Of a stretch of DNA of 64,000 bases, positions 2,032 to 16,835 are shown in pieces. A model generated the notes under the pieces. The model had not been told where the DNA came from and did no database searches. It worked only from the letters and a program-made list of their open reading frames with translations. This stretch comes from Nitrospirales bacterium (GTDB taxonomy: Bacteria; Nitrospirota; Nitrospiria; Nitrospirales; UBA8639): contig JALDRK010000005.1 in assembly GCA_031315915.1 (NCBI GenBank), positions 62,001 through 126,000 of the forward strand, in the 5' to 3' direction. The number at the start of each line of letters is the position of its first letter. Position 1 is the first letter of the stretch. Both the position numbers and the translations under genes were made by a program.

Positions 2032-2826
2032 ATGCAGCCTCAATATGGTCCCGCTTTGGTGGACATGATAGAAGGAACGTTAAGTTGGCGGATGTGGGGA
2101 CGTTTAGGCTGGCTTGATATTAAGCGCCGGTATCGTCGCACGATGATTGGTCCATTTTGGACGACGTTATCTTTGGGGATTTTTATTTTAACCCTGGGGA
2201 TCATGTGGGCCCATCTCTGGAAACAAGATCCCAAAATGTATTTACCATTTTTGTGCTCAGGGTTTTTGGTGTGGGTGATGGTGTCCACCACCTTAATTGA
2301 AGGATGTGCCGTCTTTTTTTCTGCGGAAGGATTAATCAAGCAGCTTCGGTTTCCGTATTCGATGCTGGTGTGGTCTGTAGTCTGGCGCAATGTGATCGTG
2401 TTTTTTCATAACCTGATTATTTTCCTGTTAGTCGGCCTCTATGCAGGGGTGCCGGTGAACGCGGCCACTCTGTTGGTATTTCCGGGTCTGGTCTTACTGA
2501 TTCTCAACAGCTTGTGGATGGTTGTTGTATTGGGGTTGGTTTGCTCCCGTTTCAGGGATATTCAACAAGTCATGTCCAGTATTTTGCAGCTTGCCATGTT
2601 CGTTACCCCGATTTTCTGGACGGCCGATCAACTGGGAAAGCGGTTTATCTCATTTATCGAGTATAATTTTCTTTTTCATGTTGTGGATATCGTGCGGTCT
2701 CCGCTTCTTGGAAAATCGCCTGCCCTGTGGAGTTGGCTATACGTGGGCGGAGTAACCCTGGTTGGTTGGATAGTTGCCGTGGTGATTTTCAGCCGGTTTC
2801 GCCGTCGTATTTCCTATTGGATATAA
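2032..2826 (+). CDS. Polysaccharide ABC transporter permease (Wzm/KpsM/TagG type)
   Basis: This 264-residue protein has about six hydrophobic segments after an amphipathic N-terminus (LGWLDIKRRYRRTMIGPFW), the usual layout of ABC-2 permeases that export O-antigen, capsule or teichoic acid. The RRYRR(T)xxGPFW block is typical of this group. It ends 17 bases before the ATPase at 2844, and the two should form a 2+2 exporter in the inner membrane moving an undecaprenyl-linked glycan. Start is ATG 2032 with AAGGAAGAG upstream. The family is clear; the exported polymer is not known. Confidence 0.9.
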   Translation: MQPQYGPALVDMIEGTLSWRMWGRLGWLDIKRRYRRTMIGPFWTTLSLGIFILTLGIMWAHLWKQDPKMYLPFLCSGFLVWVMVSTTLIEGCAVFFSAEGLIKQLRFPYSMLVWSVVWRNVIVFFHNLIIFLLVGLYAGVPVNAATLLVFPGLVLLILNSLWMVVVLGLVCSRFRDIQQVMSSILQLAMFVTPIFWTADQLGKRFISFIEYNFLFHVVDIVRSPLLGKSPALWSWLYVGGVTLVGWIVAVVIFSRFRRRISYWI

Positions 2827-2843: not shown

Positions 2844-3605
2844 ATGGCATCTTTGGTGCTGGAAAATGTGACCATCGATTTTCCGATCTATGGGTCGCAG
2901 AAAACATTCCGTCATGCCCTCTTTGAAAAAACCACAGGCGGGTTTATTCGACGGGAGGGGAATAAGAATCAACGGGTCACGGTCCGCGCCTTGGAAAATA
3001 TTTCTTTAACCTTATCCCATGGTGACCGTCTTGGAATGATCGGTCACAATGGCGCGGGAAAGTCCACCTTGCTTCGGGTCTGTGCCGGCGTCTATGAGCC
3101 GACCTATGGGAAAGTGTCGATAAATGGAAAAGTGTCTCCGTTGTTTAGTACCTCTCCGGGTCTGGATGGGGACGATACCGGCTATGAGAATATTCAAACG
3201 TGCGGCATGTTCCTTGGAATGACGCCGGAAGAAATTGCGAGGAAGACTCCGGAAATCGAACAATTTTCAGAACTCGGAGACTATTTATCCCTTCCCGTGC
3301 GGACCTATTCGACAGGCATGCTGGTACGGCTGGGGTTTGGGATTGCCACGTCCATCGACCCTGAAATATTGTTATTGGATGAAGGGCTTGGAGCCGGGGA
3401 CGCCCGTTTTGCCGAAAGGGCCAACAAACGGGTAGATGCCCTGGTGGCCCGGGCCAGTATTCTGGTCCTGGCTTCCCACTCCGATGCCTTAATCAAAACT
3501 ATGTGCAACAAAGCCATTCTGCTACAGGGAGGGCTGATTGTTGCCTCGGGAAGTGTGGATGACGTGATCAAGGAGTATCAGCAGATAAACAAGTCCGTTG
3601 CATAA
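2844..3605 (+). CDS. Polysaccharide ABC transporter ATPase (Wzt/KpsT/TagH type)
   Basis: The protein has Walker A (GHNGAGKST), a signature-like YSTGMLVRLGF and Walker B (ILLLDEGLGAGD), the pattern of polysaccharide-export ATPases. ATG 2844 was chosen over an upstream in-frame start because GGAGG at 2831-2835 fits it and the N-terminus then matches the family (LVLENVTIDFPIYG). At 253 residues it lacks the C-terminal carbohydrate-binding domain found in Wzt proteins that recognise a capped O-antigen terminus, so substrate recognition is probably of the KpsT/TagH kind. It pairs with the permease just upstream. Confidence 0.92.
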   Translation: MASLVLENVTIDFPIYGSQKTFRHALFEKTTGGFIRREGNKNQRVTVRALENISLTLSHGDRLGMIGHNGAGKSTLLRVCAGVYEPTYGKVSINGKVSPLFSTSPGLDGDDTGYENIQTCGMFLGMTPEEIARKTPEIEQFSELGDYLSLPVRTYSTGMLVRLGFGIATSIDPEILLLDEGLGAGDARFAERANKRVDALVARASILVLASHSDALIKTMCNKAILLQGGLIVASGSVDDVIKEYQQINKSVA

Positions 3606-3618
3606 GTGAAGGCCAGCC

Positions 3619-5412
3619 ATGACCATGTCACCACTTTTGGAACCCTTGTGCCGAGACCCGCTTCAGAAGGAACGTTCGTTTCGTCCCTTTTATTTTACGG
3701 TCGTCTTCTGGGGTGCGGAACATCGCGGTTATTTTACCGATTTATTGCTGGCTTCGCTTCTTTCTCCCCGAAATATCCCCGCTCTCAATAAGGCCCGTCG
3801 AAATAAATTTCTCATTGTGACGACCCTCCAGGATTGGACGATCTTGCAGGATCATGCCTTGTTTCAGCTGTTGTGCCAATATGTGGAGCCGGTCTTCTTT
3901 GAAATGCCCTTTCCCGAGAAACATGACCAGAAAATGTTGGTCATGTCCCGCGGGCATAAACTGGTCTCGATGAAAGCCTATGAGGATGAGGCCTACGGGG
4001 TCTATGTTACCCCTGATCTCATCCTGTCCGATGGTTCCGTGGCCGCCATGGAGCAGTTGGCGGAGCAGGGGAGAAAAGTGGTCCTCTGCGTGGCCATCCG
4101 GTTTCGGCAGGAGACAATGCTGCCGGTCATGGAGGAGAGAAATTTTTTAAAACAGGGTCAGCCTCTCGCCATTTCTTCCCGGGAATTAATGGGGATGGCG
4201 CTCCAAAATCTGCATTCGGAAACCCTACGCTATGAGTTCGAGGCCCCTCATTTCGCGGATTTCCCTATTTCGGTGTATTGGTGGGCTTCTCCCGATAAGG
4301 GCATGATCATCCATAGCTTCAGTTGGGCTCCTCTGGTTGTGGACTATGGAGCGCTGGAACACCACGACACGCAAACTTTTGACAATTGGACGTTGGACGG
4401 CGATTACATCCATCGGAATTTTCCCAATCCTGATGACGTGTATGTCGTGACCGATAGCGATGAGATTTCTCTCGTCAGTTTTACCAAAGAGTCCGATCTT
4501 CATTTTGATCTCATTCCTGAACCCACCAAGAGCCAGTATGGGGTTCTGTCTCATGACTTTAAAGTTGGATTGATCCGTTCCCTGAAAGATAGTCTGATTA
4601 TGGATCCCTTAAAACGGACCATTTTTCCCCAGGGGGTCTTCCTGCATAGCGAGGAGATTACGCCGGAGTGGAATGAGGCTGCCGAGCAATCTACCCGGGT
4701 GATACGGCATGCCTGTCGTCCCCCGACCTTGTCGGAACAGTTTCATCTTGACGTGATCGAGCAGTCCACCAATAGCCGGTTTGCCAGAAACATTCTGAGC
4801 CGGCTTCAGACCAACTCATCTGAACGACTTTCCAAGGAAGACCTTCACAAATATTATTTGCTGTGGGTTTGGGTTATCCGTCCAAGAAGATTTCTGTTAA
4901 GGATGGCGAGAGCCATCGGGAATTTCCTACGGCCTATCTCGAATCAGATCTCCCAACTTTTATGGTTTTACCGGTATCGTCGGTTCCTGTGGTGGCGCTT
5001 AAAAGAGAAGCTTGGGTTGGTGCCCGAGCAAGGGTTTGACTGGAAAACGGCGGAGTGGGCCGGGCCGGGCCTCAGTCCGGTATGTCCGTGGTTCACGTTG
5101 AAAGAGATGTGGCGAAACCGACGTTGGTTTTGGCGTTATCGGCGGTATGTCTGGTGGAGACTCAAGGAAAAACTGCACCTGGTGGAATCGGGCGGGAATC
5201 ATTGGCAACATGGCGGGTGGGATACCCCTGCCATCAGCTTCCTGTATCCCGTTTTTACCGTAAAATGGTTTTGGCGAAATCGTGCGGACCTTTGGAAATC
5301 CAAACATCGTTTGGGGACATGGGTGAAGGAGCATTTTGGCTTTTGGCGGAAACGTTCGAAAAACGAAACTCCCGGTTTCAAAAAAAGTAATCAGACCCGA
5401 AAAATTTCCTGA
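3619..5412 (+). CDS. Paralog A of a four-member unknown family; GT-like core with Trp/Arg repeat tail
   Basis: I do not recognise a named family. The 597-residue protein shares ordered motifs with the products at 7072, 8487 and 10262: an N-terminal strand FYFTVVFWGAEHR (about residues 24-36), SLLSPRNIP, MSRGH (109), PDLILSDGSV (132-141), HSFSWAPLVVDYG, NWTLDGDYI (257-265), TDSDE (278-282) and MDPLKR. A strand-first core with DxD-like TDSDE and a DGD motif resembles a GT-A glycosyltransferase; that is inference. Residues from about 444 onward are a 54-residue Trp/Arg-rich repeat absent from its relatives. It lies 13 bases after the exporter ATPase, so a role in building the exported glycan is likely. 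Confidence 0.7.
   Translation: MTMSPLLEPLCRDPLQKERSFRPFYFTVVFWGAEHRGYFTDLLLASLLSPRNIPALNKARRNKFLIVTTLQDWTILQDHALFQLLCQYVEPVFFEMPFPEKHDQKMLVMSRGHKLVSMKAYEDEAYGVYVTPDLILSDGSVAAMEQLAEQGRKVVLCVAIRFRQETMLPVMEERNFLKQGQPLAISSRELMGMALQNLHSETLRYEFEAPHFADFPISVYWWASPDKGMIIHSFSWAPLVVDYGALEHHDTQTFDNWTLDGDYIHRNFPNPDDVYVVTDSDEISLVSFTKESDLHFDLIPEPTKSQYGVLSHDFKVGLIRSLKDSLIMDPLKRTIFPQGVFLHSEEITPEWNEAAEQSTRVIRHACRPPTLSEQFHLDVIEQSTNSRFARNILSRLQTNSSERLSKEDLHKYYLLWVWVIRPRRFLLRMARAIGNFLRPISNQISQLLWFYRYRRFLWWRLKEKLGLVPEQGFDWKTAEWAGPGLSPVCPWFTLKEMWRNRRWFWRYRRYVWWRLKEKLHLVESGGNHWQHGGWDTPAISFLYPVFTVKWFWRNRADLWKSKHRLGTWVKEHFGFWRKRSKNETPGFKKSNQTRKIS
4948..5352 (+). repeat. Tandem 162-bp / 54-residue repeat in paralog A (2.5 copies)
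   Basis: Copies begin at about 4948, 5110 and 5272, exactly 162 bases apart. The protein repeat aligns as (W/F)xWRYRRxxWWRLKEKL followed by a loop with a conserved Trp and a P-rich PVxxFT segment; the third copy is partial and diverged. The units are rich in Trp, Arg and Lys, which suggests an amphipathic, membrane-interface or nucleotide/glycan-binding surface. No paralog has it, so it arose or was gained within this gene. Confidence 0.8.
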
Positions 5413-5456
5413 AATCCTAGAAGGCCTCTTGTTTAGAAAACTCAAGGATTGCCGGT

Positions 5457-6368
5457 TTGTCATCAACGTCCGTTTTTGCCCATTCTTTTGTTCATGACCA
5501 ATCTCCGGCCCGAGTTGTCTTATTTGGCGGGACCGGAGTCATCGGAAAAGCCCTCAGACGGGATCTGGAAAGAAATAAAATCCCGGTAGTTTCCTTCGGA
5601 TCCCAAGAACTCAATTTAGTTGAAGTTCATGCCCCTTCCAGATTGATCAAACTATTGCGGCCCACTGATTCGGTTGTGGTCCTGGCAGGCATTGCTCCCA
5701 ATCGTGGTCGGGGGCTGGATACCATGGTGGATAATATAAGAATGGGTATCGGATTGTGTGAAGCGCTTGTTCGTCAACCGGTGGCCCATATTGTTTACGT
5801 GAGCTCGGATGCGGTGTATCCCCGAAATATTGAAATGCTGGATGAACAGACTCCTGTGGAACCGTCCGATCCCTATTCGGCCATGCACTTAACCAGGGAA
5901 CGCCTCTTCTCCGGCCTTTCAAGGCTACCGGTCGCTATTTTACGAAGTACACAAATCTCTTCTTCTGAAGATACCCATAATGCTTACGGGCCAAACCGGT
6001 TCAGACAAATGGCGAAACAGAACGGGAAAATCCAATTGTTTGGTAAGGGTGAGGATAAACGGGATCACATTGTTTCAAGTGATGTGGCCAGAATTATCCA
6101 TGGGTGTCTGCTTAAACGCAGCCATGGGATCCTCAATGTCGCCACAGGTCGATCCTTGAGTTTCGCCGAAGTGGCCGAAATCGTTGGTGGCTGTTTTGCT
6201 CCGCCTCCCCATCTGGAATTTCTTCCTCGACCCATTCCGCTCACCCATCGGTATTTTGATGTTGGGTTGTTAAGACTGATGTTTCCGGATTTGTGTTTTA
6301 CCCCTTTGGAAGTTGATGAACCAACTATTCAACACAATCGCCAATTAATTTCTTTGAGTCAACGATGA
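5457..6368 (+). CDS. NAD(P)-dependent SDR epimerase/dehydratase-like protein
   Basis: An extended short-chain dehydrogenase of 303 residues with the nucleotide-binding GGTGVIG near residue 24, the strand VYVSSDAVYP and the active-site region PYSAMH. The usual YxxxK is here Y140-S-A-M-H144, so the catalytic lysine is replaced by histidine. Such enzymes act on nucleotide sugars (epimerase, dehydratase or reductase). The start is TTG 5457 with AAGGA upstream; no ATG fits the N-terminal strand. It sits between paralog A and a methyltransferase in the same run, so nucleotide-sugar remodelling is likely, but the changed lysine leaves activity uncertain. Confidence 0.75.
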   Translation: MSSTSVFAHSFVHDQSPARVVLFGGTGVIGKALRRDLERNKIPVVSFGSQELNLVEVHAPSRLIKLLRPTDSVVVLAGIAPNRGRGLDTMVDNIRMGIGLCEALVRQPVAHIVYVSSDAVYPRNIEMLDEQTPVEPSDPYSAMHLTRERLFSGLSRLPVAILRSTQISSSEDTHNAYGPNRFRQMAKQNGKIQLFGKGEDKRDHIVSSDVARIIHGCLLKRSHGILNVATGRSLSFAEVAEIVGGCFAPPPHLEFLPRPIPLTHRYFDVGLLRLMFPDLCFTPLEVDEPTIQHNRQLISLSQR

Positions 6369-6392
6369 AGAGAAAAGGGGTTCGTTTTCACC

Positions 6393-7067
6393 ATGAGTGA
6401 TTCAAACGAAGGGGAACAGCAGTATCGCGACGCGTTTGAATTGGTCAAAAATCGACCACAGCATTTTGGGCTAATGAGTGGATGGTCCTGGTATGACGAT
6501 CCCAAGCGGCTTGGCTTCCTGTTGGCACGATATAAATTCGTTGCCAAAATGTTGATCGATCAACCGCGAGTGTTGGAAATCGGTTGTGGTGACGGGTTTG
6601 GAACCAGAGTGGTGGTCCAGGCAGTCGGGCATGTCACAGCCGTGGACTTTGATCCGGAACTCATCCAATCGGCCAAGGACACCATGTCGGAACGATGGCC
6701 CTATGAATGCCGAGTGCATGATATGATGCAGGGGCCGGTGGCGGAGAGGTTTGATGCGGTCTATTCGTTGGATGTGCTTGAGCACATTCCCCCGAACCAT
6801 GAAGCCAAATTCCTGGATCATCTGACGAAGTCGCTCGCTCCTCATGGGGTCGCCATACTGGGAATGCCGTCGTTGCAGTCGCAAACCTATGCCTCGGCCC
6901 ACAGTCGAATCGGACATGTGAATTGTAAAGATCAAATGGATTTGAAACGAGTGATGCAAGGGTGGTTTCGGCATGTGTTTATGTTTTCCATGAACGATGA
7001 AGTCGTCCACACCGGGTTTCATGCCATGGCCCATTATCATCTGTGTTTATGTTGTGGAAAGAAGTGA
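6393..7067 (+). CDS. Class I SAM-dependent methyltransferase
   Basis: The 224-residue protein has the SAM-binding motif VLEIGCGDGFG, the acidic residue after strand 2 (AVDFDPE) and a motif IV-like YSLDVLEHIPP, typical of methyltransferase type 11/12. Start ATG 6393 follows AAAAGGGG. It begins 25 bases after the SDR and ends four bases before the likely TTG start of paralog B, so it is probably co-transcribed. The substrate is not shown by sequence; a sugar or the polymer end (chain capping) would fit the locus. Confidence 0.85.
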   Translation: MSDSNEGEQQYRDAFELVKNRPQHFGLMSGWSWYDDPKRLGFLLARYKFVAKMLIDQPRVLEIGCGDGFGTRVVVQAVGHVTAVDFDPELIQSAKDTMSERWPYECRVHDMMQGPVAERFDAVYSLDVLEHIPPNHEAKFLDHLTKSLAPHGVAILGMPSLQSQTYASAHSRIGHVNCKDQMDLKRVMQGWFRHVFMFSMNDEVVHTGFHAMAHYHLCLCCGKK

Positions 7068-7071
7068 TTAT

Positions 7072-8490
7072 TTGGAGAATGAGGATCCGGTCCGCCCTTT
7101 TTATTATATCGTGGCATTTTGGGGCTCAACCTACCGACGCCACTTTCTTCAATTGTGTCTTCCATCGCTCCTTGCTCCGGGCAACATCCCGTTTCTCCTC
7201 GGTAAAAGACCTTCCAGGTTTTTAATCAGCACCACGCACCAGGACTGGGCTGCCCTTTCCACTGATCCCCTGTTTTCTCGTCTGCAAACCTTTGTGGAGC
7301 CGGTGTTTCTGGAGCTTAGACGGGAAGTTCCGGATTTTTTGAAAACGGTCGTTCAGGAAAAAATGCGACGAAGCTCTTCTGAATCGATAGAACGGAACCG
7401 GTCTGTGGATTGTCCTTTGTCCCCTCTCGATATCGCGACTCCCGAGGTGTTTGAAGAGCTTCAAGCCCTGGGGCGGGAAATGGGAGTGGAATTGACCGAC
7501 CATCATCATTATGCCGTGCGAATCTTGTTCATGAGCGCGGGACATAAAGCCGCCGCGTCGCAGGCTCATCATGATCAGGCCTATGGAATTTTTCTGGCTC
7601 CGGATATGGTGCTGTCGGACGGCGCCGTAGCTCATCTGCATCAGCTCGCTCAATCGGGAAAAAAAGTTGTGATGGTGTCAGCATGCCGATTTTCCCTTGA
7701 AGACGGTATCCGGGAGTTTCACAACAGCGGGCTGATGGCATCGGCTGAAGCTCTCATACTTCCACCGAGGAAACTTGTCGAAATGGTTTTCGGGTGCTTA
7801 CACCCGGAAACGGCCTGCTTCGAATTCGATTCGCCCTTGTTTTCCAATCCCGCCACATCGGCGTTTTGGAAAGTTTCCGGTGATGAGGGTGTGTTGCTCC
7901 ACAGTTTTTTTTGGGCGCCGCTTCTGGTGGACTATGTGGGGATCGACAGACATCACGGGGACTATTTCGATGCAGGTGGGACGACGGATGGTAAATATAT
8001 TGCGATGCATTTTGATTTCAATCGGGATGTGTCTCCCGTGACGGATTCGGATGAGATTTTCCTGGCCAGTTTTACCCCGCGAGGTGAATATGCGTACTCT
8101 GTCAGAGCCGGGATTCTGAAGCAGATTCCAGGTTTGCGTATGCACTATAAAACGTTCCTGATCAGACGGACTCTGTATGGACCTATGGGAGATCCCATGA
8201 AACGAAGTCTCTATCGGTGGCCTGTCCGGTTGCATAGTCAGTCCCTATCCCTTGAATGGAAAGAGGTCGAACAACGCGCGGATCAGATCGTGAAGCGGGC
8301 GTTGAAAGTCCCGGGAGTGTGGGGACGAACAGCCAATACGGTTCTCTGGCTCAAGAGTTTGTGTGCCGGGCCCAACCTTTCAGGGAGAATCCGCAATGTG
8401 GGCGGCTATCTGATCGGAAAAATATCTCCGCAGACGCGCACATGGCTGAAGCGGATCCTTGGACAATGGGGAATGGGAAAATGGTCATGA
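7072..8490 (+). CDS. Paralog B of the four-member unknown family
   Basis: The protein (472 residues from TTG 7072) repeats the family's motifs: PFYYIVAFWGSTYR at the N-terminus, SLLAPGNIP, MSAGHK, PDMVLSDGAV, HSFFWAPLLVDY and TDSDE. Two differences stand out: an insertion of roughly 50 residues before MSAGH, and DGDYI changed to DGKYI. TTG 7072 is preferred because GGAAAGAAG precedes it and it falls just after the previous stop; the frame is open further upstream inside the methyltransferase gene. It overlaps paralog C through ATGA at 8487-8490, implying translational coupling. Function unknown; glycosyltransferase-like by layout only. Confidence 0.65.
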   Translation: MENEDPVRPFYYIVAFWGSTYRRHFLQLCLPSLLAPGNIPFLLGKRPSRFLISTTHQDWAALSTDPLFSRLQTFVEPVFLELRREVPDFLKTVVQEKMRRSSSESIERNRSVDCPLSPLDIATPEVFEELQALGREMGVELTDHHHYAVRILFMSAGHKAAASQAHHDQAYGIFLAPDMVLSDGAVAHLHQLAQSGKKVVMVSACRFSLEDGIREFHNSGLMASAEALILPPRKLVEMVFGCLHPETACFEFDSPLFSNPATSAFWKVSGDEGVLLHSFFWAPLLVDYVGIDRHHGDYFDAGGTTDGKYIAMHFDFNRDVSPVTDSDEIFLASFTPRGEYAYSVRAGILKQIPGLRMHYKTFLIRRTLYGPMGDPMKRSLYRWPVRLHSQSLSLEWKEVEQRADQIVKRALKVPGVWGRTANTVLWLKSLCAGPNLSGRIRNVGGYLIGKISPQTRTWLKRILGQWGMGKWS

Positions 8491-10253
8491 CCGTGCAGAA
8501 TCCCATCCTGTATTTTGTGGTGGTCTTTTGGGGATCGCAATACCGGCAATGGTTTCTCGATCTTTTGCTCCCCTCATTGTTGTCACCGAATAATCTTCCT
8601 GCTCTTCCCAAGTCCCCACGACATCGATTGCTGATTGTGACGATTGACGAAGATTGGAAACAGATTCAACAGCATCCGGCTTTCCTGAAGTGTCGGGAAC
8701 TGATTGATCCGGTACATCTGAGCATGCGCCCTCCTCCTGCACATGCCAATAAATATTTGGTCATGTCCCGTGGGCATCAAAAGGCCACAAGACACACATT
8801 TCAGGATCGGGCCTGTGGCGTCTTCCTCACTCCAGACCTGGTGTTATCTGATGGATCGGTGGATGCGTTGTATCGACTGGCCCTGGAGGGAAAACGTGTG
8901 GTGCTCTGCGCCGCTATGCGGTTTGCCCAGGAACCCTGTTTGGCCGAAATTCAGGCTCTTCGAGAGCGGTCTACGGACCAGGCTTTGGTCTTACCGGCAC
9001 AGGTCCTGGCGGATATGGCGATCCGGCATATGCACATGGAGACCCTACGCTACGATTACGACATGCCTTTTTTTGCGGATCGTCCGATCAGCTTTTTTTT
9101 CCGAACCCCGGATCAACACGCCATTCTGGTCCATAGTTTTAGTTGGGCGCCTCTTCTGGTTAATTATGGTGCCTTGACGGAGCATAACGAGAAGACTCTT
9201 CAGAGTTGGACCATGGACGGGGATTACATTTATCAAAATTTTGGAGATTCAACGCAAATTTATGTCGTGCAGGATTCCGATGAGATTCTCTTAGTCAGTT
9301 TTACTCCACAGGACGATTTTCTGGGTTATCTGAGTCATAATCTTTTTTTACCCCGGTGGTATCTGTCATGGCCGATTGTGAAAGATTATTGGAAAACTCA
9401 TGCGATCCGTCGGGTAAAGAATTCCCATGATATGGATCCTCTTAAGCGAAGTATTCTATCACGGGGAGTGCGGATTCATGCCCAGGAACATTCCGCCACT
9501 TGCTGGAGTGACGTTGAATCGCGGGCAAACAGGGTTTTGGACAGAGTTGAGTCCTCTCCATCCCTCATAGAAAAATGTTGCGTGGGATTGGTGAAGGTCG
9601 TGGAAGCGGTATTTTCCCGCCCCCTTTCTTATTTTCAGCAGGTGAGTGACGTGATTGGGGTTGCCAAAGTGCGAAATCTCGAGTTTACCAACCAGGCTGG
9701 AGTGGGATCCTATCGACTGGTATTGTTGGGTCACGGGGTCTCGAAAGGAAAATGGTATTGGGAAATCTCCTCTCCCAATCTTTCCGCGCAGCGTGGGCAT
9801 CTGCGTGAAACGGCCAGTATGGGAGTCGTCGGGGAGCGGCATTCCCTGGTCCGGGAGTTGGGAACTCAATCCTCAGGATGGGGATGGCGGGGAGACGGAA
9901 GCAAAATACACGACGGAAAACGGATGCCTTATGGGAGTGGGTCTGACAAGGCTATTGAAGTCATCATGGTGGCGCTGGATATGGATGCAGGTGCCATCTG
10001 GTTTGGACGGAATGGAGAATGGTTTGAAGGCGGCGATCCTGCAGATGCAAAATATCCTGCCTTTCGAAACTTGGATAACCCTGTATTTCCTGCTGTATCG
10101 TCACGGCATGGAGGGCAGGGCACGGCCAGCATGCGTGGCGCGATGACTCCAGACCAATGGAAATATCCTCCACCTGCCGGGTTTCAGTCTCTGATCAACG
10201 CATTTCATTCTGCAGGGCCTCTACCGATCGGTCCTGCCGGTGAACCGACTTAG
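8487..10253 (+). CDS. Paralog C: GT-like core fused to a C-terminal SPRY/B30.2 domain
   Basis: Residues 1 to about 330 carry the family motifs (ILYFVVVFWGSQYR, SLLSPNNLP, MSRGHQK, PDLVLSDGSV, HSFSWAPLLVNYG, TMDGDYI, DSDEI, MDPLKR). From about residue 392 the sequence changes to a SPRY domain: GKWYWEI at 421-427, a GVV strand, GWGWRGDG, then a strand ending in WFGRNGEWFEG and NPVFPAVS. SPRY domains are beta-sandwich binding modules best known from eukaryotic proteins. The start ATG 8487 overlaps the previous stop (ATGA); ATG 8481 is also possible. Inference: the SPRY module could bind the growing glycan or a protein partner. Confidence 0.75.
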   Translation: MTVQNPILYFVVVFWGSQYRQWFLDLLLPSLLSPNNLPALPKSPRHRLLIVTIDEDWKQIQQHPAFLKCRELIDPVHLSMRPPPAHANKYLVMSRGHQKATRHTFQDRACGVFLTPDLVLSDGSVDALYRLALEGKRVVLCAAMRFAQEPCLAEIQALRERSTDQALVLPAQVLADMAIRHMHMETLRYDYDMPFFADRPISFFFRTPDQHAILVHSFSWAPLLVNYGALTEHNEKTLQSWTMDGDYIYQNFGDSTQIYVVQDSDEILLVSFTPQDDFLGYLSHNLFLPRWYLSWPIVKDYWKTHAIRRVKNSHDMDPLKRSILSRGVRIHAQEHSATCWSDVESRANRVLDRVESSPSLIEKCCVGLVKVVEAVFSRPLSYFQQVSDVIGVAKVRNLEFTNQAGVGSYRLVLLGHGVSKGKWYWEISSPNLSAQRGHLRETASMGVVGERHSLVRELGTQSSGWGWRGDGSKIHDGKRMPYGSGSDKAIEVIMVALDMDAGAIWFGRNGEWFEGGDPADAKYPAFRNLDNPVFPAVSSRHGGQGTASMRGAMTPDQWKYPPPAGFQSLINAFHSAGPLPIGPAGEPT

Positions 10254-10261
10254 GGAGAGGT

Positions 10262-11461
10262 ATGGCACATCCCTGGTATTTAGGAGTGGTGTTCTGGGGA
10301 ACCGAATTCAGGAACGATTTTCTGGATTTTTGTCTGAGCTCCCTCTTGGCTCCAGGGAACATTCCGGCTATCACCGAAAAAGCCGACTGCCGGTTTCTAT
10401 TCTGCACCACCAGGGCCGATTGGGAGGCAATGCAGAATCAGCCTTCCTTTCACCTGCTCGGACAACATCTTCAGCCGGTTTGGCTGGAGTTGTCGCCTGT
10501 AGATCCGCAGGAAACCAAGATGCAGATGATGTCCCGCGGTCATCGGATGATTGCCGATGTCATGTATCGACGGAAGGTGTGGGGGACCTATGTGTATCCC
10601 GATACCGTGTTTGCAGACGGAGTTCTGTCCAGGCTCCAGGAACTCGGGCTGCAAGGGAAAAAGATTGTCCTGGCGCATTGTCCGAGGTTTGCCAATCAAG
10701 GGTTTCTTCACGCGTTGCGGACTGCCGGGTTGATCCAATCCGGTTTGCCTCTCTCGCTATCGGGTGGCCGATTGATGACCATGGCGATGCCTCATATGCA
10801 TTCCGAAACCCGCAGTTATCAGTGGGATGCTCCGTATTTTCGCGCGGAATTTCCTGCCCTGATCTGGTGGCCCGTATCCGGAGGAGGATTATTATGCCAT
10901 ACCACGGCATGGGCGCCCCTGTTGATCGACTATGGGAGGATTGAACGGCATGATACCTGGACGTTGGAAAATTGGACGATTGACGGAGACTACGTGTTCC
11001 GGAACATTCACTCCCTGGATGAGGTGCATGCAGAGACCGATCCGGATGCCATGACCTTGATCAGTTTCACGGATGAGACCAGACACTCATACCTTCCTTT
11101 GCTCCCACGCCCCGTTGTTCGTCTTCCCGGTCTGGGAACCTGGTATCGAAAACTGTGTCTCAGAAATCTTCTGCATTCTGCGGAGATTGATCCTTTGAAA
11201 CGCAAACTCTTCCTGGTGCCGATTTATGTTCCTGGGGAAGCTCCATCGTCCAATTTGGAAAAAATCAGGACCGAATCCAGTCAAATTTTGAATGAAAGCT
11301 CACGCCCTCTCAGCTCGATGGAATCCAGGATCATGTATTGGTTGAGAGTGGTGAATGAAGGGATCTTCCTTCATGCAGGATTTTGGATTGCCAACCGTCC
11401 TCAATTATTACGAATGATGCCTGAGCCGGTTAGAGAGAAGATCACCGGAAAAAATACATGA
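10262..11461 (+). CDS. Paralog D of the four-member unknown family (shortest)
   Basis: At 399 residues this is close to the bare family core: WYLGVVFWGTEFR, SLLAPGNIP, MSRGHR, YPDTVFADGV, TTAWAPLLIDYG, NWTIDGDYV and a DPLKR-like segment. The TDSDE found in A, B and C is TDPDA here, so if that motif binds a metal this copy may have lost or changed activity. The start ATG 10262 follows AGGGAGAGG, eight bases after paralog C ends. Like the others it has no signal peptide or clear membrane segment, which fits action on the cytoplasmic side before export. Confidence 0.65.
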   Translation: MAHPWYLGVVFWGTEFRNDFLDFCLSSLLAPGNIPAITEKADCRFLFCTTRADWEAMQNQPSFHLLGQHLQPVWLELSPVDPQETKMQMMSRGHRMIADVMYRRKVWGTYVYPDTVFADGVLSRLQELGLQGKKIVLAHCPRFANQGFLHALRTAGLIQSGLPLSLSGGRLMTMAMPHMHSETRSYQWDAPYFRAEFPALIWWPVSGGGLLCHTTAWAPLLIDYGRIERHDTWTLENWTIDGDYVFRNIHSLDEVHAETDPDAMTLISFTDETRHSYLPLLPRPVVRLPGLGTWYRKLCLRNLLHSAEIDPLKRKLFLVPIYVPGEAPSSNLEKIRTESSQILNESSRPLSSMESRIMYWLRVVNEGIFLHAGFWIANRPQLLRMMPEPVREKITGKNT

Positions 11462-11509: not shown

Positions 11510-13429
11510 ATGTGTGGAATTGCCGGACGCTATAACTATCTGTCACATGCACCAGTCCAGCCGGAACTTCTACGGGGCATGTGTGAATTGTTGGCCCATC
11601 GTGGGCCGGACGGGGAGGGGGTCTATCATCAAAAAGATGTGGGTTTCGGTCATCGCCGGTTGGCTGTGCTTGATTTGACGGAAGCAGCCCATCAACCAAT
11701 GGTCCGTGGAAACGGAGCATTGGTCATCACCTACAACGGGGAAATATACAATTTCAAAGAGCTTAGGAAAACGCTTGAAGGGTTCGGTCATCAATTCCGT
11801 TCGCAAAGCGATACCGAGGTAGTGTTGGCCGCTTACGAACAGTACGGAGTGGACTGTCTACGACACTTGCAGGGAATGTTTGCGTTTGCCATTTGGGATG
11901 CCGGACAACGAACTCTCTTCCTGGTAAGGGATCGTGCCGGGAAAAAGCCGTTATATTACCGCGTCGATCGGGATGGAATCGCCTTTGCTTCAGAACCCAA
12001 GGCCTTTTTAGCCGAACCCGCCTATCATCCGCTGGTTGATTTGGGTGCCATTGCCCACTATCTGACCTATCAGTATGTTCCAGCCGCCGAGTCGGCCTTT
12101 CATGGGGTACATAAGCTCCTGCCTGCGCAGTATCTCCTAATCAAAAATGGGAAAATCCATGTCGAGCGATACTGGCACCGTCCGTCTGAACCGTCGTTTC
12201 CAGGATCGCTTCAGGAGGCTCAGGAGGAACTCCTAGTCAAACTCAAGGAGGCCATACGGGGCCGGATGATCAGTGACGTGCCCTTGGGAGCCTTTTTAAG
12301 TGGGGGACTGGACTCAAGTGTTATTGTGGGTCTCATGGCTCAACTGAGTGATCGGCCTATCAAAACATTCTCCATCGGATTTGAACATCACGGATATAAC
12401 GAACTTCCCTATGCCAAATTAGTGGCCCGGTATTTTAGCACCGATCATCATGAGTATCTCGTAACCCCCAAAGCTATGGAAATTTTCCCCCGGCTGGCCT
12501 GGTCCTACAATGAACCCTTTGCGGATTCTTCGGCGATACCCACATCTTATCTGGCCCAACTGACCCGGAAACATGTGACCGTGGCCTTGAACGGGGATGG
12601 GGGGGATGAAAATCTGTTGGGATATGACCGGTATCGCGCCATGGTGTTGGGGGATCGGTTTGATCACCTTCCGGGCGCTATCCGAAATGGCGTGAATGCT
12701 CTGGCGGGGTTAATTCCGGAACCAACGACCTTCAAATCGAAACTGAATCGTGTGAGGCGGTTTGTCTCCGGATTAGGGGAACCGGCGATACGGCGATACG
12801 GCCGATGGATCACCCATCTCGATCCGGAGGAAATCGCACGCGTATGTCAGGGGGAACTGCTGGCGTCGTATCTAAAGGACGAAGCATTCTCTCTGTTGGG
12901 TGAGGCTTTTCATCGATCGGCTGCCCCGGATCTGCCCGGCAGGTTTCAGGATGTGGATTTTCAGACCTATTTGCCGGATGATCTGCTGGTCAAGGTAGAT
13001 ATCGCCACCATGGCCTATGGATTGGAGGCCCGCTCGCCGTTCTTGGACCATCACGTCATCGAATTTTGCGCCAGCCTGCCCACAGCCATGAAAATGCGCG
13101 GCAGTCAGAAAAAGTATGTGTTGAAACAGGCCGTCCAATCTCTCTTGCCGCAGGAAATCGTGAATCGCCCGAAGATGGGTTTTGGAGTGCCGATGGATCA
13201 TTGGCTCCGTACCGACCTTCGGGAAATGGCCTACGACCTTCTGTTGTCGGATCGGGCTGTCCAGCGGGGATATTTCCGGAAGCCTGTCGTAGAGGGGTGG
13301 CTTGATGAACATACAAAAGGACGAAGAGATCGGCATGAACGTTTATGGAACCTGCTTATGCTGGAACTCTGGCACCGGGCCTATATCGATGGCGAGAAAA
13401 ATTATCGAACTTTACCGAATTTCATGTAA
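11510..13429 (+). CDS. asnB: Asparagine synthase (glutamine-hydrolysing), AsnB type
   Basis: The protein starts MCGIAG, with Cys2 the glutaminase nucleophile after Met removal, followed by an Ntn amidotransferase domain (HRGPDG, GEIYNF, SDTEV) and an ATP-pyrophosphatase domain with the loop LSGGLDSS. Length, about 639 residues, is normal for the family. ATG 11510 is used rather than TTG 11501 because only the former puts Cys at position 2. AsnB paralogs in surface-glycan loci often amidate sugar carboxyl groups rather than make free asparagine; its position after four glycan-type genes makes that a fair alternative. Confidence 0.9.
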   Translation: MCGIAGRYNYLSHAPVQPELLRGMCELLAHRGPDGEGVYHQKDVGFGHRRLAVLDLTEAAHQPMVRGNGALVITYNGEIYNFKELRKTLEGFGHQFRSQSDTEVVLAAYEQYGVDCLRHLQGMFAFAIWDAGQRTLFLVRDRAGKKPLYYRVDRDGIAFASEPKAFLAEPAYHPLVDLGAIAHYLTYQYVPAAESAFHGVHKLLPAQYLLIKNGKIHVERYWHRPSEPSFPGSLQEAQEELLVKLKEAIRGRMISDVPLGAFLSGGLDSSVIVGLMAQLSDRPIKTFSIGFEHHGYNELPYAKLVARYFSTDHHEYLVTPKAMEIFPRLAWSYNEPFADSSAIPTSYLAQLTRKHVTVALNGDGGDENLLGYDRYRAMVLGDRFDHLPGAIRNGVNALAGLIPEPTTFKSKLNRVRRFVSGLGEPAIRRYGRWITHLDPEEIARVCQGELLASYLKDEAFSLLGEAFHRSAAPDLPGRFQDVDFQTYLPDDLLVKVDIATMAYGLEARSPFLDHHVIEFCASLPTAMKMRGSQKKYVLKQAVQSLLPQEIVNRPKMGFGVPMDHWLRTDLREMAYDLLLSDRAVQRGYFRKPVVEGWLDEHTKGRRDRHERLWNLLMLELWHRAYIDGEKNYRTLPNFM

Positions 13430-14694: not shown

Positions 14695-15456
14695 ATGGAC
14701 TTTATTAAAGGGATGATTAAAAAGATCCTTCAACGATTCCGGGCATTGGTGTGGAGGCTCACCAAGCCTGGAGGCTCCTCGCCCTTGTCTTATTATTTGG
14801 ATCAGAAAGCCATTATCCGTGCCCGTAGTGTTTTTATCATCAAGACTCACGATGCGATTAATGTCCGGTGGGCAGGCCATCAATGCTATCAATATCCGAT
14901 GGATGCCTGGCTGATTCAAGAAGTGCTCAGCGATACGAGGCCCGACCTGATCGTGGAAACGGGCACGTATATGGCAGGCAGCACCTATTTCTATGCGTGC
15001 GTGTGCGATCTGCTTGGTCACGGGGAGGTGATCAGCATCGATATCAAACCGCTGGCCACCATCGAACATCCGCGCATTACCTATCTGGAGGGGTCTTCCA
15101 CGGATGAGACTATGGTGCAAAAAGTGAAAAACCGGATTGCGGAACTCGGGGCCAAAAAAGTTCTGGTGATCTTGGACTCGGACCATAAGGCGGCGCACGT
15201 TCAAAAAGAGCTTGAGCTCTATGCTCCGCTGGTCCCTCTCGGAGGATATATTCATGTCCAGGATGGCAATATGGACGAGCTGCCCATGCTGAAGGGGTTA
15301 CGACCTGGGCCCATGGCGGCGGCTATGGGGTTTCTTCGATCTCACCCGGAGTTCATGCGGGACATTGATTTGGAAAAACGGTATCTCATGACCGAGCATC
15401 CCTATGGGTGGCTCAAGCGTGCGGCGTTGTCTCCACAATCTACGGATATCAAGTAA
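14695..15456 (+). CDS. CmcI-like methyltransferase/hydroxylase family protein
   Basis: The 253-residue protein matches the cephalosporin hydroxylase (CmcI)/rhamnosyl O-methyltransferase family: the YQYPMDAW entry, VETGTYMAGST as the SAM-binding loop, ISIDIK after strand 2, and VILDSDH where the metal/catalytic acids lie, then GGYIHVQDGN. Members seen in glycan loci are usually sugar O-methyltransferases. Start ATG 14695 has AGGGAAG upstream. It is separated from the main glycan run by the ankyrin remnant and is the last intact gene of that locus before the Rhs/IS zone. Confidence 0.8.
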   Translation: MDFIKGMIKKILQRFRALVWRLTKPGGSSPLSYYLDQKAIIRARSVFIIKTHDAINVRWAGHQCYQYPMDAWLIQEVLSDTRPDLIVETGTYMAGSTYFYACVCDLLGHGEVISIDIKPLATIEHPRITYLEGSSTDETMVQKVKNRIAELGAKKVLVILDSDHKAAHVQKELELYAPLVPLGGYIHVQDGNMDELPMLKGLRPGPMAAAMGFLRSHPEFMRDIDLEKRYLMTEHPYGWLKRAALSPQSTDIK

Positions 15457-15678: not shown

Positions 15679-16835
15679 GCAGAATCATACATTCCAGTTC
15701 CTCCCTCTCCTTCCTTTGAAAATCCGGATCTGAGCGTCATCACCCATACCTATAACGGCCCTCAACTCTGGCAGGTGAAGGAAGGTAGCACCGTCTATGG
15801 GGCCTATACAGGCTTCAATGCCTTGGGCCAACCCAGCACCCTCACGCTGGGCAACGGGGCTGCCACCACCTATACGTACGATTCCGCTAACTACCGCCTC
15901 AAGACCTTAAAAACGGTCAAAGGGGCGATAACTCTCCAGGATTTGACCTACACGTTTGATGCCGGCGGCAACGTGACGGCCCTAGCCGATCCTGTGCCTG
16001 GCCACGGCAATCAAACCTTTGTGTACGACGGTTTGGCCCGGCTCACCTCCTCCACTGGGCCCTACGGCACGGTCACCAATACCTACGATCAGATCGGCAA
16101 CATGCTCAGCAATTCTCGTCTATCCCCCAGCACCTATACCTACCCGGCCAGCGGGAGCAGCAGCGTGCGTCCCCATGCCGTGAGTACCGCAGGCGGGAAT
16201 ACCTACACCTACGATGCCAACGGCAACATGAAGGGCGGCGCGGGCCGCACCATCACCTATGACTACGAAAACCGGCCGGTCAGTGTGACCAAGAGTGGTA
16301 CGACTACTACTTTTGTCTACGACGGCGATGGCGGGCGGGTAAAGAAAACCGTCGGCACGACCACGACGACCTATATCGGCAAGCTCTATGTCCGCGAGGG
16401 AACTTCTTGTGCCAAAATGATTTTTGGGGGAGGACAACGAATCGCCATCAAGCAGGTGACTACCGGCTCCACCAGTTATTTCCATCCCGATCATTTGGAT
16501 CGACCAGTGTGCCTGACCAGCAGCAGCGGCGTGAAAGGAACAAGATCCCCGGTCTACTATCCCTATGGGAGAGACTATTTAACGCAACTTTACCGTGGCC
16601 TATAAATATACCGGCAAAGAATTGGATGACAGCACCGGCCTCTACTTCTACGAAGCCCGCTATTACGATGCAGTTCTTGGTCGATTTATTTCAGCCGATA
16701 CCATCGTGCCCGATCCGACCGGATCCGCAGCGTTCAATCCGGTATAGTTATGTCTTTAATAATCCATTGCGGTATACGGATCCCACAGGGCATTGTCCGT
16801 ATTGTGGTCCCGGGGGGTATGATCATTCTCGATAA
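15679..16835 (+). pseudogene. Rhs/YD-repeat core fragment, several frameshifts
   Basis: The region encodes YD repeats (TYTYDSANYRLKTLK, TFVYDGLARL, TYTYDANGNM, YDYENRPVSV) and the conserved Rhs core end (YFHPDHL, PVYYPYG, KELDDSTGLYFYEARYYD, GRFISAD, RYSYVFNNPLRYTDPTGH). It has no start: the frame opens after a stop, so the 5' part of the gene is missing. The core is spread over three frames, with shifts near 16500, 16590 and 16720. Near 16500 two opposite indels cancel (HLDRPVCLTSSS where the 20.8-kb copy has HLGSTSVLTNGS). Intact Rhs proteins are large secreted toxins or filaments; this is debris. Confidence 0.85.

What the first reader, a model, noticed from the sequence alone, without database searches (positions are those of the whole stretch)
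3619..11461. Four related large proteins of unknown function in one glycan-export locus
Products at 3619, 7072, 8487 and 10262 share an ordered motif set (FWG near the N-terminus, SLL.P.NIP, MSxGH, PD..(L/F)(S/A)DG, WAPL(L/V)(V/I/N)YG, DG(D/K)Y, TDSDE or variant, DPLKR). The order suggests a GT-A-like glycosyltransferase family amplified by duplication next to a Wzm/Wzt exporter, each copy varying in one feature. Seen: motif order and tandem position. Inferred: glycosyltransferase activity and role in assembling the exported polymer.
Basis: partly seen in the sequence, partly recalled or inferred. Interest (0 to 1): 0.8.

Follow-up and report, generated by a model that had tools for sequence, protein, structure and literature searches.

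The report
Unnamed sugar-transferase family, five ancient copies
A bacterium, probably a Nitrospira relative, carries five distantly related copies of an enzyme family with no Pfam or NCBIfam model, whose predicted shape is that of a sugar-adding enzyme, beside a polysaccharide exporter; one copy has gained a SPRY domain, so the family is a good candidate for unassigned steps in building a cell-surface sugar polymer.

Summary
The four proteins align end to end over about 345 residues (30-38% identity), and a fifth copy lies 4.3 kb before the window. No Pfam or NCBIfam model matches the shared domain.

AlphaFold2 models it confidently (pLDDT 94, pTM 0.92). All listed Foldseek PDB matches are GT-A glycosyltransferases or the related sugar-nucleotidyltransferases. 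Overlap is partial (TM at most 0.36 by query length), so this looks like a separate GT-A family. A profile of 53 relatives also picks up ordinary GT2 enzymes, in register at the metal-binding aspartate. This places the DxD-type Asp in 'PDxxxSDG' (D114 of copy 4), not in 'TDSDE'. The near-invariant Asp of 'T.DG(D/K)Y' (D241) starts a helix, where inverting GT-A enzymes hold their catalytic base. 'DSD' is at most a C-His-like third ligand.

Each copy has its own ortholog in other genomes, in the same gene order, so the duplications are old. Copies differ outside the core: variable repeat tail (copy 1), insertion (copy 2), SPRY domain (copy 3). Relatives occur in Alpha-, Beta- and Gammaproteobacteria, Desulfovibrio and a phage contig.

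Best reading: metal-dependent GT-A glycosyltransferases assembling a glycan exported by Wzm/Wzt. Activity, donors and role are inferred, not shown.

The parts
3619..5412 (+). Copy 1 (W1, 597 aa): GT-A-like core about residues 22-370, then a long predicted helix (406-464) and a W/R-rich tail with a 54-aa repeat
   Evidence: ORF; alignment; AlphaFold2 core pLDDT above 90 in most blocks, tail mostly 75-87 then below 65; tail repeat period 54 and copy number varying between orthologs
4969..5292 (+). Two 54-aa repeat units in the tail of copy 1 (approximate limits)
   Evidence: 33 of 103 residues identical at lag 54; one unit in L021 and L022 orthologs, two in G004
6997..8490 (+). Copy 2 (W2, 473-497 aa): same core with an insertion of about 60 aa between the third strand and the MSxGH helix; start uncertain (ATG 6997, GTG 7054 or TTG 7072)
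   Evidence: insertion also in the L022 ortholog; overlap with the upstream methyltransferase ORF also seen in G004 and L022
8487..10253 (+). Copy 3 (W3, 588 aa): same core plus a C-terminal SPRY domain
9750..10118 (+). SPRY domain of copy 3 (residues 422-544)
   Evidence: Pfam PF00622 E = 4.1e-11, 43.5 bits against a cut-off of 26.3; matches SPRY domains of DDX1, SPSB2 and ASH2 in PDB; kept in both orthologs
10262..11461 (+). Copy 4 (W4, 399 aa): core with a short helical tail
   Evidence: ORF; model of residues 1-363, pLDDT 94.4, pTM 0.92
10601..10603 (+). D114 of copy 4, predicted DxD-type metal/nucleotide-binding Asp ('YPDTVFADG')
   Evidence: 91% conserved in 53 domains; aligned with the NPD Asp of GT2 enzymes
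10982..10984 (+). D241 of copy 4, predicted catalytic base (xED-like, 'TIDGDY')
   Evidence: Asp in 50 of 52 non-gap rows; immediately precedes helix 242-248 in the model
11039..11047 (+). D260-P-D262 of copy 4 ('TDSDE' in copies 1 and 2), possible C-His-equivalent metal ligand
   Evidence: D260 73%, D262 65% conserved; follows strand 255-258
2032..2826 (+). Wzm-type ABC-2 exporter permease
   Evidence: PF01061 E = 8e-15; NF050109 E = 8.5e-78 but below its cut-off
2844..3605 (+). Wzt-type ATPase of about 253 aa without a C-terminal extension (ORF opens at 2727; likely ATG 2844)
   Evidence: PF00005 E = 2e-17; NF050108 E = 7e-83, covering the profile nearly end to end but below its cut-off
5457..6368 (+). 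NAD-dependent epimerase/dehydratase-family sugar enzyme between copies 1 and 2
   Evidence: PF01370 E = 2e-24
6393..7067 (+). SAM methyltransferase; similar genes sit near 7 of the 32 distant-relative loci
   Evidence: PF13649 E = 8e-16; context count
11510..13429 (+). Asparagine-synthase-like amidotransferase closing the block
   Evidence: TIGR03108 E = 4e-182 (below its cut-off), PF00733
573..1637 (+). Radical SAM/SPASM protein upstream of the exporter
   Evidence: PF04055 and PF13186

Best explanation
The five paralogs are metal-dependent, nucleotide-sugar-using glycosyltransferases with a GT-A fold, in a family that has no Pfam or NCBIfam model. They probably work in the cytoplasm. Each would bind a sugar nucleotide and a divalent metal through the Asp of 'PDxxxSDG', with help from the 'DSD' element. 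The conserved Asp of 'T.DG(D/K)Y' at the start of a helix would serve as base in an inverting transfer. Each copy probably makes one linkage, or uses one donor, of a single repeating or capped glycan that is exported complete by the adjacent Wzm/Wzt transporter. The extra modules (repeat helix of copy 1, insertion of copy 2, SPRY of copy 3) would set membrane attachment, partner binding or acceptor choice. Shown by computation: homology, predicted fold, conserved residues, old paralogy, genomic setting. Inferred: activity, mechanism, donors, polymer and division of labour.
For: Model with pLDDT 94.4 and pTM 0.92, strand/helix order of a GT-A N-terminal half. The 50 listed PDB hits are GT-A enzymes (SpsA, WrtF, mannosylglycerate synthase, TarP, chondroitin polymerase, LARGE1) or sugar nucleotidyltransferases of the same fold; a second model (copy 1) gives the same picture. 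The family profile picks up proteins of Pfam Glycos_transf_2 type at the DxD region (one confirmed by Pfam, E = 1.2e-26) with the Asp in register; hhalign against a GT2 alignment puts the same residues together. D114 91% and D241 96% conserved across 53 domains from several phyla; the xED-Asp at the start of helix alphaF is the usual base of inverting GT-A enzymes, and Asp can replace C-His as metal ligand (PMC7185993). Neighbours: Wzm/Wzt, dehydratase/epimerases, aminotransferase, HldE-like, transaldolase, split transketolase, FkbM and carbamoyl transferases. Each copy keeps its own orthologs in G004 and/or OFTM313, with conserved gene order. One relative is fused to a GT2 domain.
Against: TM-scores to solved GT-A structures are low (at most 0.36 by query length), so only the nucleotide-binding half is clearly shared; the rest may carry out another reaction. 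The GT2 profile link is short (65 positions; hhalign probability only 33%). No activity data exist. In 25 of the 32 distant-relative loci no Wzm/Wzt was found within the DNA held, so the family is not tied to that exporter. Coordinates of the model were not available, so clustering of D114, D241 and D260/D262 in one pocket was not checked.
Confidence: 0.75

Rival explanations
1. They are GT-A glycosyltransferases, but they modify something other than the Wzm/Wzt polymer, for example a glycoprotein, flagellin or lipid-linked short glycan.
For: Most distant relatives lie in loci without a detected Wzm/Wzt (25 of 32); several are fused to TPR repeats or to a second copy; a phage contig carries one beside a GT2 gene.
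Against: In this locus the Wzm/Wzt genes sit immediately before copy 1 in all three genomes, and 7 of 32 distant loci also have Wzm/Wzt. Many loci are truncated, so absence is weak evidence.
Confidence: 0.15
2. They are sugar-1-phosphate nucleotidyltransferases (RmlA/GlmU-like) that make the activated sugars.
For: RmlA and ADP-glucose pyrophosphorylase appear among the Foldseek hits.
Against: No Pfam nucleotidyltransferase match; the sequence-profile link goes to GT2, not to nucleotidyltransferases; the conserved xED-like Asp is a glycosyltransferase feature. From general knowledge, the G-rich nucleotidyltransferase signature is not seen.
Confidence: 0.04
3. Some copies are catalytically dead GT-A folds that act as scaffolds or chaperones for the active ones, as COSMC does for T-synthase (PMC7185993).
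For: Five old paralogs with divergent add-on modules; copy 4 varies in the DSD motif (TDPDA).
Against: All five keep D114 and D241 equivalents, unlike COSMC, which lost both motifs.
Confidence: 0.06

Closest known systems
GT2 glycosyltransferases (Pfam PF00535; SpsA of Bacillus subtilis as structural type)
   Same: Same N-terminal GT-A half by Foldseek (E = 1.7e-5, about 145 columns); DxD-type Asp in register by profile alignment.
   Different: No Pfam GT2 match for any family core; TM-score by query length only 0.26; the family has its own near-invariant N-terminal WG and SLLxPGNxP motifs and a much longer C-terminal half.
WrtF fucosyltransferase (PDB 9omh-9omn)
   Same: Among the highest TM-scores of the listed PDB hits (TMq 0.30-0.36, TMt up to 0.47); GT-A sugar transferase.
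   Different: About 10-12% identity and rmsd above 10 over the full alignment; not the same family.
A0A6J5PWU5, uncharacterised protein of an uncultured Caudovirales phage
   Same: Same fold throughout: TM 0.78/0.82 over 350 columns, E = 2.3e-25; evidently a member of this family.
   Different: 18% identity; viral; also unannotated.
Wzm/Wzt galactan exporter (NF050109/NF050108)
   Same: The neighbouring transporter is nearest to this type, without a C-terminal extension on Wzt.
   Different: Both subunits score below the curated cut-offs, so the exported polymer is not shown to be a galactan.
SPRY domain proteins (PF00622)
   Same: C-terminus of copy 3 passes the Pfam cut-off and matches DDX1, SPSB2 and ASH2.
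   Different: Here it is fused to a predicted bacterial glycosyltransferase; its ligand is unknown.

Membership tests
GT-A fold glycosyltransferases (superfamily) | Rossmann-like nucleotide-binding alpha/beta half | tested here: met
   AlphaFold2 model and Foldseek against PDB; partial overlap only, TM at most 0.36 by query
GT-A fold glycosyltransferases (superfamily) | DxD-type Asp after the strand that ends the nucleotide-binding sheet | tested here: met
   D114 follows strand 107-111, 91% conserved, in register with GT2
GT-A fold glycosyltransferases (superfamily) | xED-Asp at the start of helix alphaF (inverting enzymes) | tested here: inconclusive
   D241, 96% conserved, directly precedes helix 242-248, but equivalence to alphaF was not checked by superposition
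GT-A fold glycosyltransferases (superfamily) | C-His or substitute coordinating the metal | tested here: inconclusive
   DSD element 65-73% conserved after a C-terminal strand; geometry not available
GT-A fold glycosyltransferases (superfamily) | Sugar transfer from a nucleotide donor | not testable with these tools
   needs biochemistry
Pfam Glycos_transf_2 (PF00535) | Match above the curated cut-off | tested here: not met
   No GT2 match in any window copy or in 31 relatives, except a separate fused GT2 domain in L038
SPRY (PF00622), for copy 3 residues 422-544 | Match above the curated cut-off | tested here: met
   43.5 bits against 26.3
Galactan exporter NF050109/NF050108, for the neighbouring Wzm/Wzt | Match above the equivalog cut-offs | tested here: not met
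   261.6 against 380 and 277.6 against 400 bits
Any existing CAZy GT family | Sequence membership in a CAZy family | not testable with these tools
   CAZy is not held here; Pfam and NCBIfam have no model for the core

The most novel reading that the evidence does not exclude
The copies form an exporter-coupled assembly complex of a new glycosyltransferase family in which the SPRY beta-sandwich on copy 3 recognises the growing or finished glycan, standing in for the carbohydrate-binding domain that this Wzt lacks, and the variable repeat helix of copy 1 acts as a length or membrane spacer.
Probability: 0.08. Interest if true: 0.75.

Novelty: new variant of a known kind. Interest (0 to 1): 0.48.

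Why it matters
The family is spread over several phyla and a phage contig and has no Pfam or NCBIfam model, so members are left as hypothetical proteins (for example in Solidesulfovibrio). If it is a glycosyltransferase family, it supplies candidates for missing steps in many surface-glycan loci. A glycosyltransferase-SPRY fusion kept in three genomes gives a testable role for a bacterial SPRY domain.

Tried and rejected
Sequence searches of PDB with one copy and with a 31-member profile found nothing meaningful. Viral contig scans with the narrow queries found no relative; the 53-member profile found one. tblastn of copy 4 against phage records found nothing; plasmids gave one weak relative. 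Recent duplication was rejected by the tree. 'TDSDE' as the DxD was rejected in favour of 'PDxxxSDG'. PHROGs and NCBIfam scans of all 53 members gave only isolated weak hits, each in a single member. Literature searches found no paper on this family or on a glycosyltransferase-SPRY fusion; the library is partial.

Full report
Observation. The four proteins exist at the stated coordinates and are true paralogs: they align over the whole 345-residue core, not just over short motifs. The motif list is accurate, with small variants (for example NLP in copy 3, DPMKR in copy 2, TDPDA in copy 4). A whole-genome search finds a fifth copy 4.3 kb before the window (contig C45:56228-57661) and no others. 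The core matches no Pfam or NCBIfam model.

Fold. I collected relatives from public genomes, took 53 core domains and predicted copy 4. The model is confident (mean pLDDT 94.4, pTM 0.92). The 50 listed PDB matches are GT-A glycosyltransferases or the structurally related sugar nucleotidyltransferases: AfGfsA, SpsA, WrtF, LARGE1, mannosylglycerate synthase, TarP, chondroitin polymerase, RmlA. Copy 1, modelled separately, gives a similar set. Overlap with any solved structure is partial (TM by query at most 0.36), while one uncharacterised phage protein matches throughout (TM 0.78/0.82). So this is the GT-A fold, in what looks like a family of its own.

Active site. Profile-profile comparison with GT2 proteins from the same loci aligns the 'PDxxxSDG' segment with the GT2 metal-site region (E = 4.5e-4, probability only 33%). 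Independently, the family profile picks up short stretches in five Nitrospirales-level relatives. I read two of these: both have the layout of ordinary GT2 proteins, and one was confirmed by Pfam (Glycos_transf_2, E = 1.2e-26). Its alignment puts 'flnpDlvlsdgsl' on 'FFLNPDCVLTPDSV'. Hence D114 of copy 4 is the likely DxD-type Asp. D241 ('TIDGDY') is Asp in 50 of 52 rows and directly precedes a helix. In inverting GT-A enzymes the catalytic base is an Asp at the start of helix alphaF, and in some families Asp replaces the C-terminal metal-binding His (PMC7185993). These assignments are inferred, since coordinates could not be measured.

History. A maximum-likelihood tree puts each of the five copies with its own orthologs. 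Copies 1, 2, 3 and 4 have one each in G004 and in Nitrospirales OFTM313; the fifth has one in G004 and a relative in a betaproteobacterium. Gene order exporter - copy 1 - epimerase - methyltransferase - copy 2 - copy 3 - copy 4 is kept, with one extra ORF in G004 between copies 2 and 3. The duplications therefore predate the divergence of these genomes. Two of the supporting nodes are below the strict threshold (the copy 3 group, 92/89, and the wider group holding the fifth copy, 85/92). The family is rare in the phylum: 6 of 396 sampled genomes with the narrow profile; with the broad one 10 of 296, of which five are the short GT2-like stretches.

Add-on modules. Copy 3 ends in a SPRY domain (Pfam 4e-11), kept in both orthologs. 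Copy 1 ends in a long predicted helix and a W/R-rich tail with a 54-residue repeat whose number varies between orthologs; confidence in the tail model is low. Copy 2 carries an insertion of about 60 residues. Distant relatives are fused to TPR repeats, to a GT2 domain or to a second family domain.

Setting. The locus holds Wzm/Wzt (Wzt without a C-terminal extension), radical SAM, FkbM methyltransferase, carbamoyltransferase, an AAC(3)-type acetyltransferase, dTDP-glucose-dehydratase-like and PseC-like aminotransferase genes, an HldE-like kinase/nucleotidyltransferase, GmhA-like and transaldolase genes and a split transketolase. Among 32 distant-relative loci, the transketolase halves recur in 10 and 11, one methyltransferase type in 11, another in 7, HldE in 7 and Wzm/Wzt in 7. 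No background rate was computed for these counts, and loci are of unequal length. The host was not identified by name; relatives point to the order Nitrospirales.

Verdict. Function remains a prediction. Interest is moderate: a GT-A family with no existing Pfam or NCBIfam model, five old paralogs in one locus, and a bacterial glycosyltransferase-SPRY fusion.

Noticed in passing
L007:10785-11996 (-), contig C45 upstream of the window: A 403-aa protein with no Pfam or NCBIfam match at E up to 1, next to the fifth copy; similar genes lie near 5 of 32 distant family loci.
   Followed up: partly
L072:5962-7008: A phage-like contig (capsid- and tail-like genes nearby) carries a family member directly after a GT2-like gene, with a methyltransferase-like gene before that.
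   Followed up: partly
window 6997-7067: The 3' end of the methyltransferase gene overlaps the ATG-started reading frame of copy 2 by about 70 nt; the same overlap is seen in G004 and L022.
   Followed up: partly
window 14695-15453: RMNT_CmcI-type methyltransferase (PF04989, E = 1e-49) downstream of the locus.
   Followed up: no
window 15775-16602: RHS-repeat reading frame (PF05593) without an obvious complete RHS protein around it.
   Followed up: no
L024 (Betaproteobacteria): A fifth-copy relative sits with carbamoyltransferase, AAC(3)-type, FkbM, aminotransferase and transketolase genes like those around the fifth copy here, suggesting transfer of a block between phyla.
   Followed up: partly
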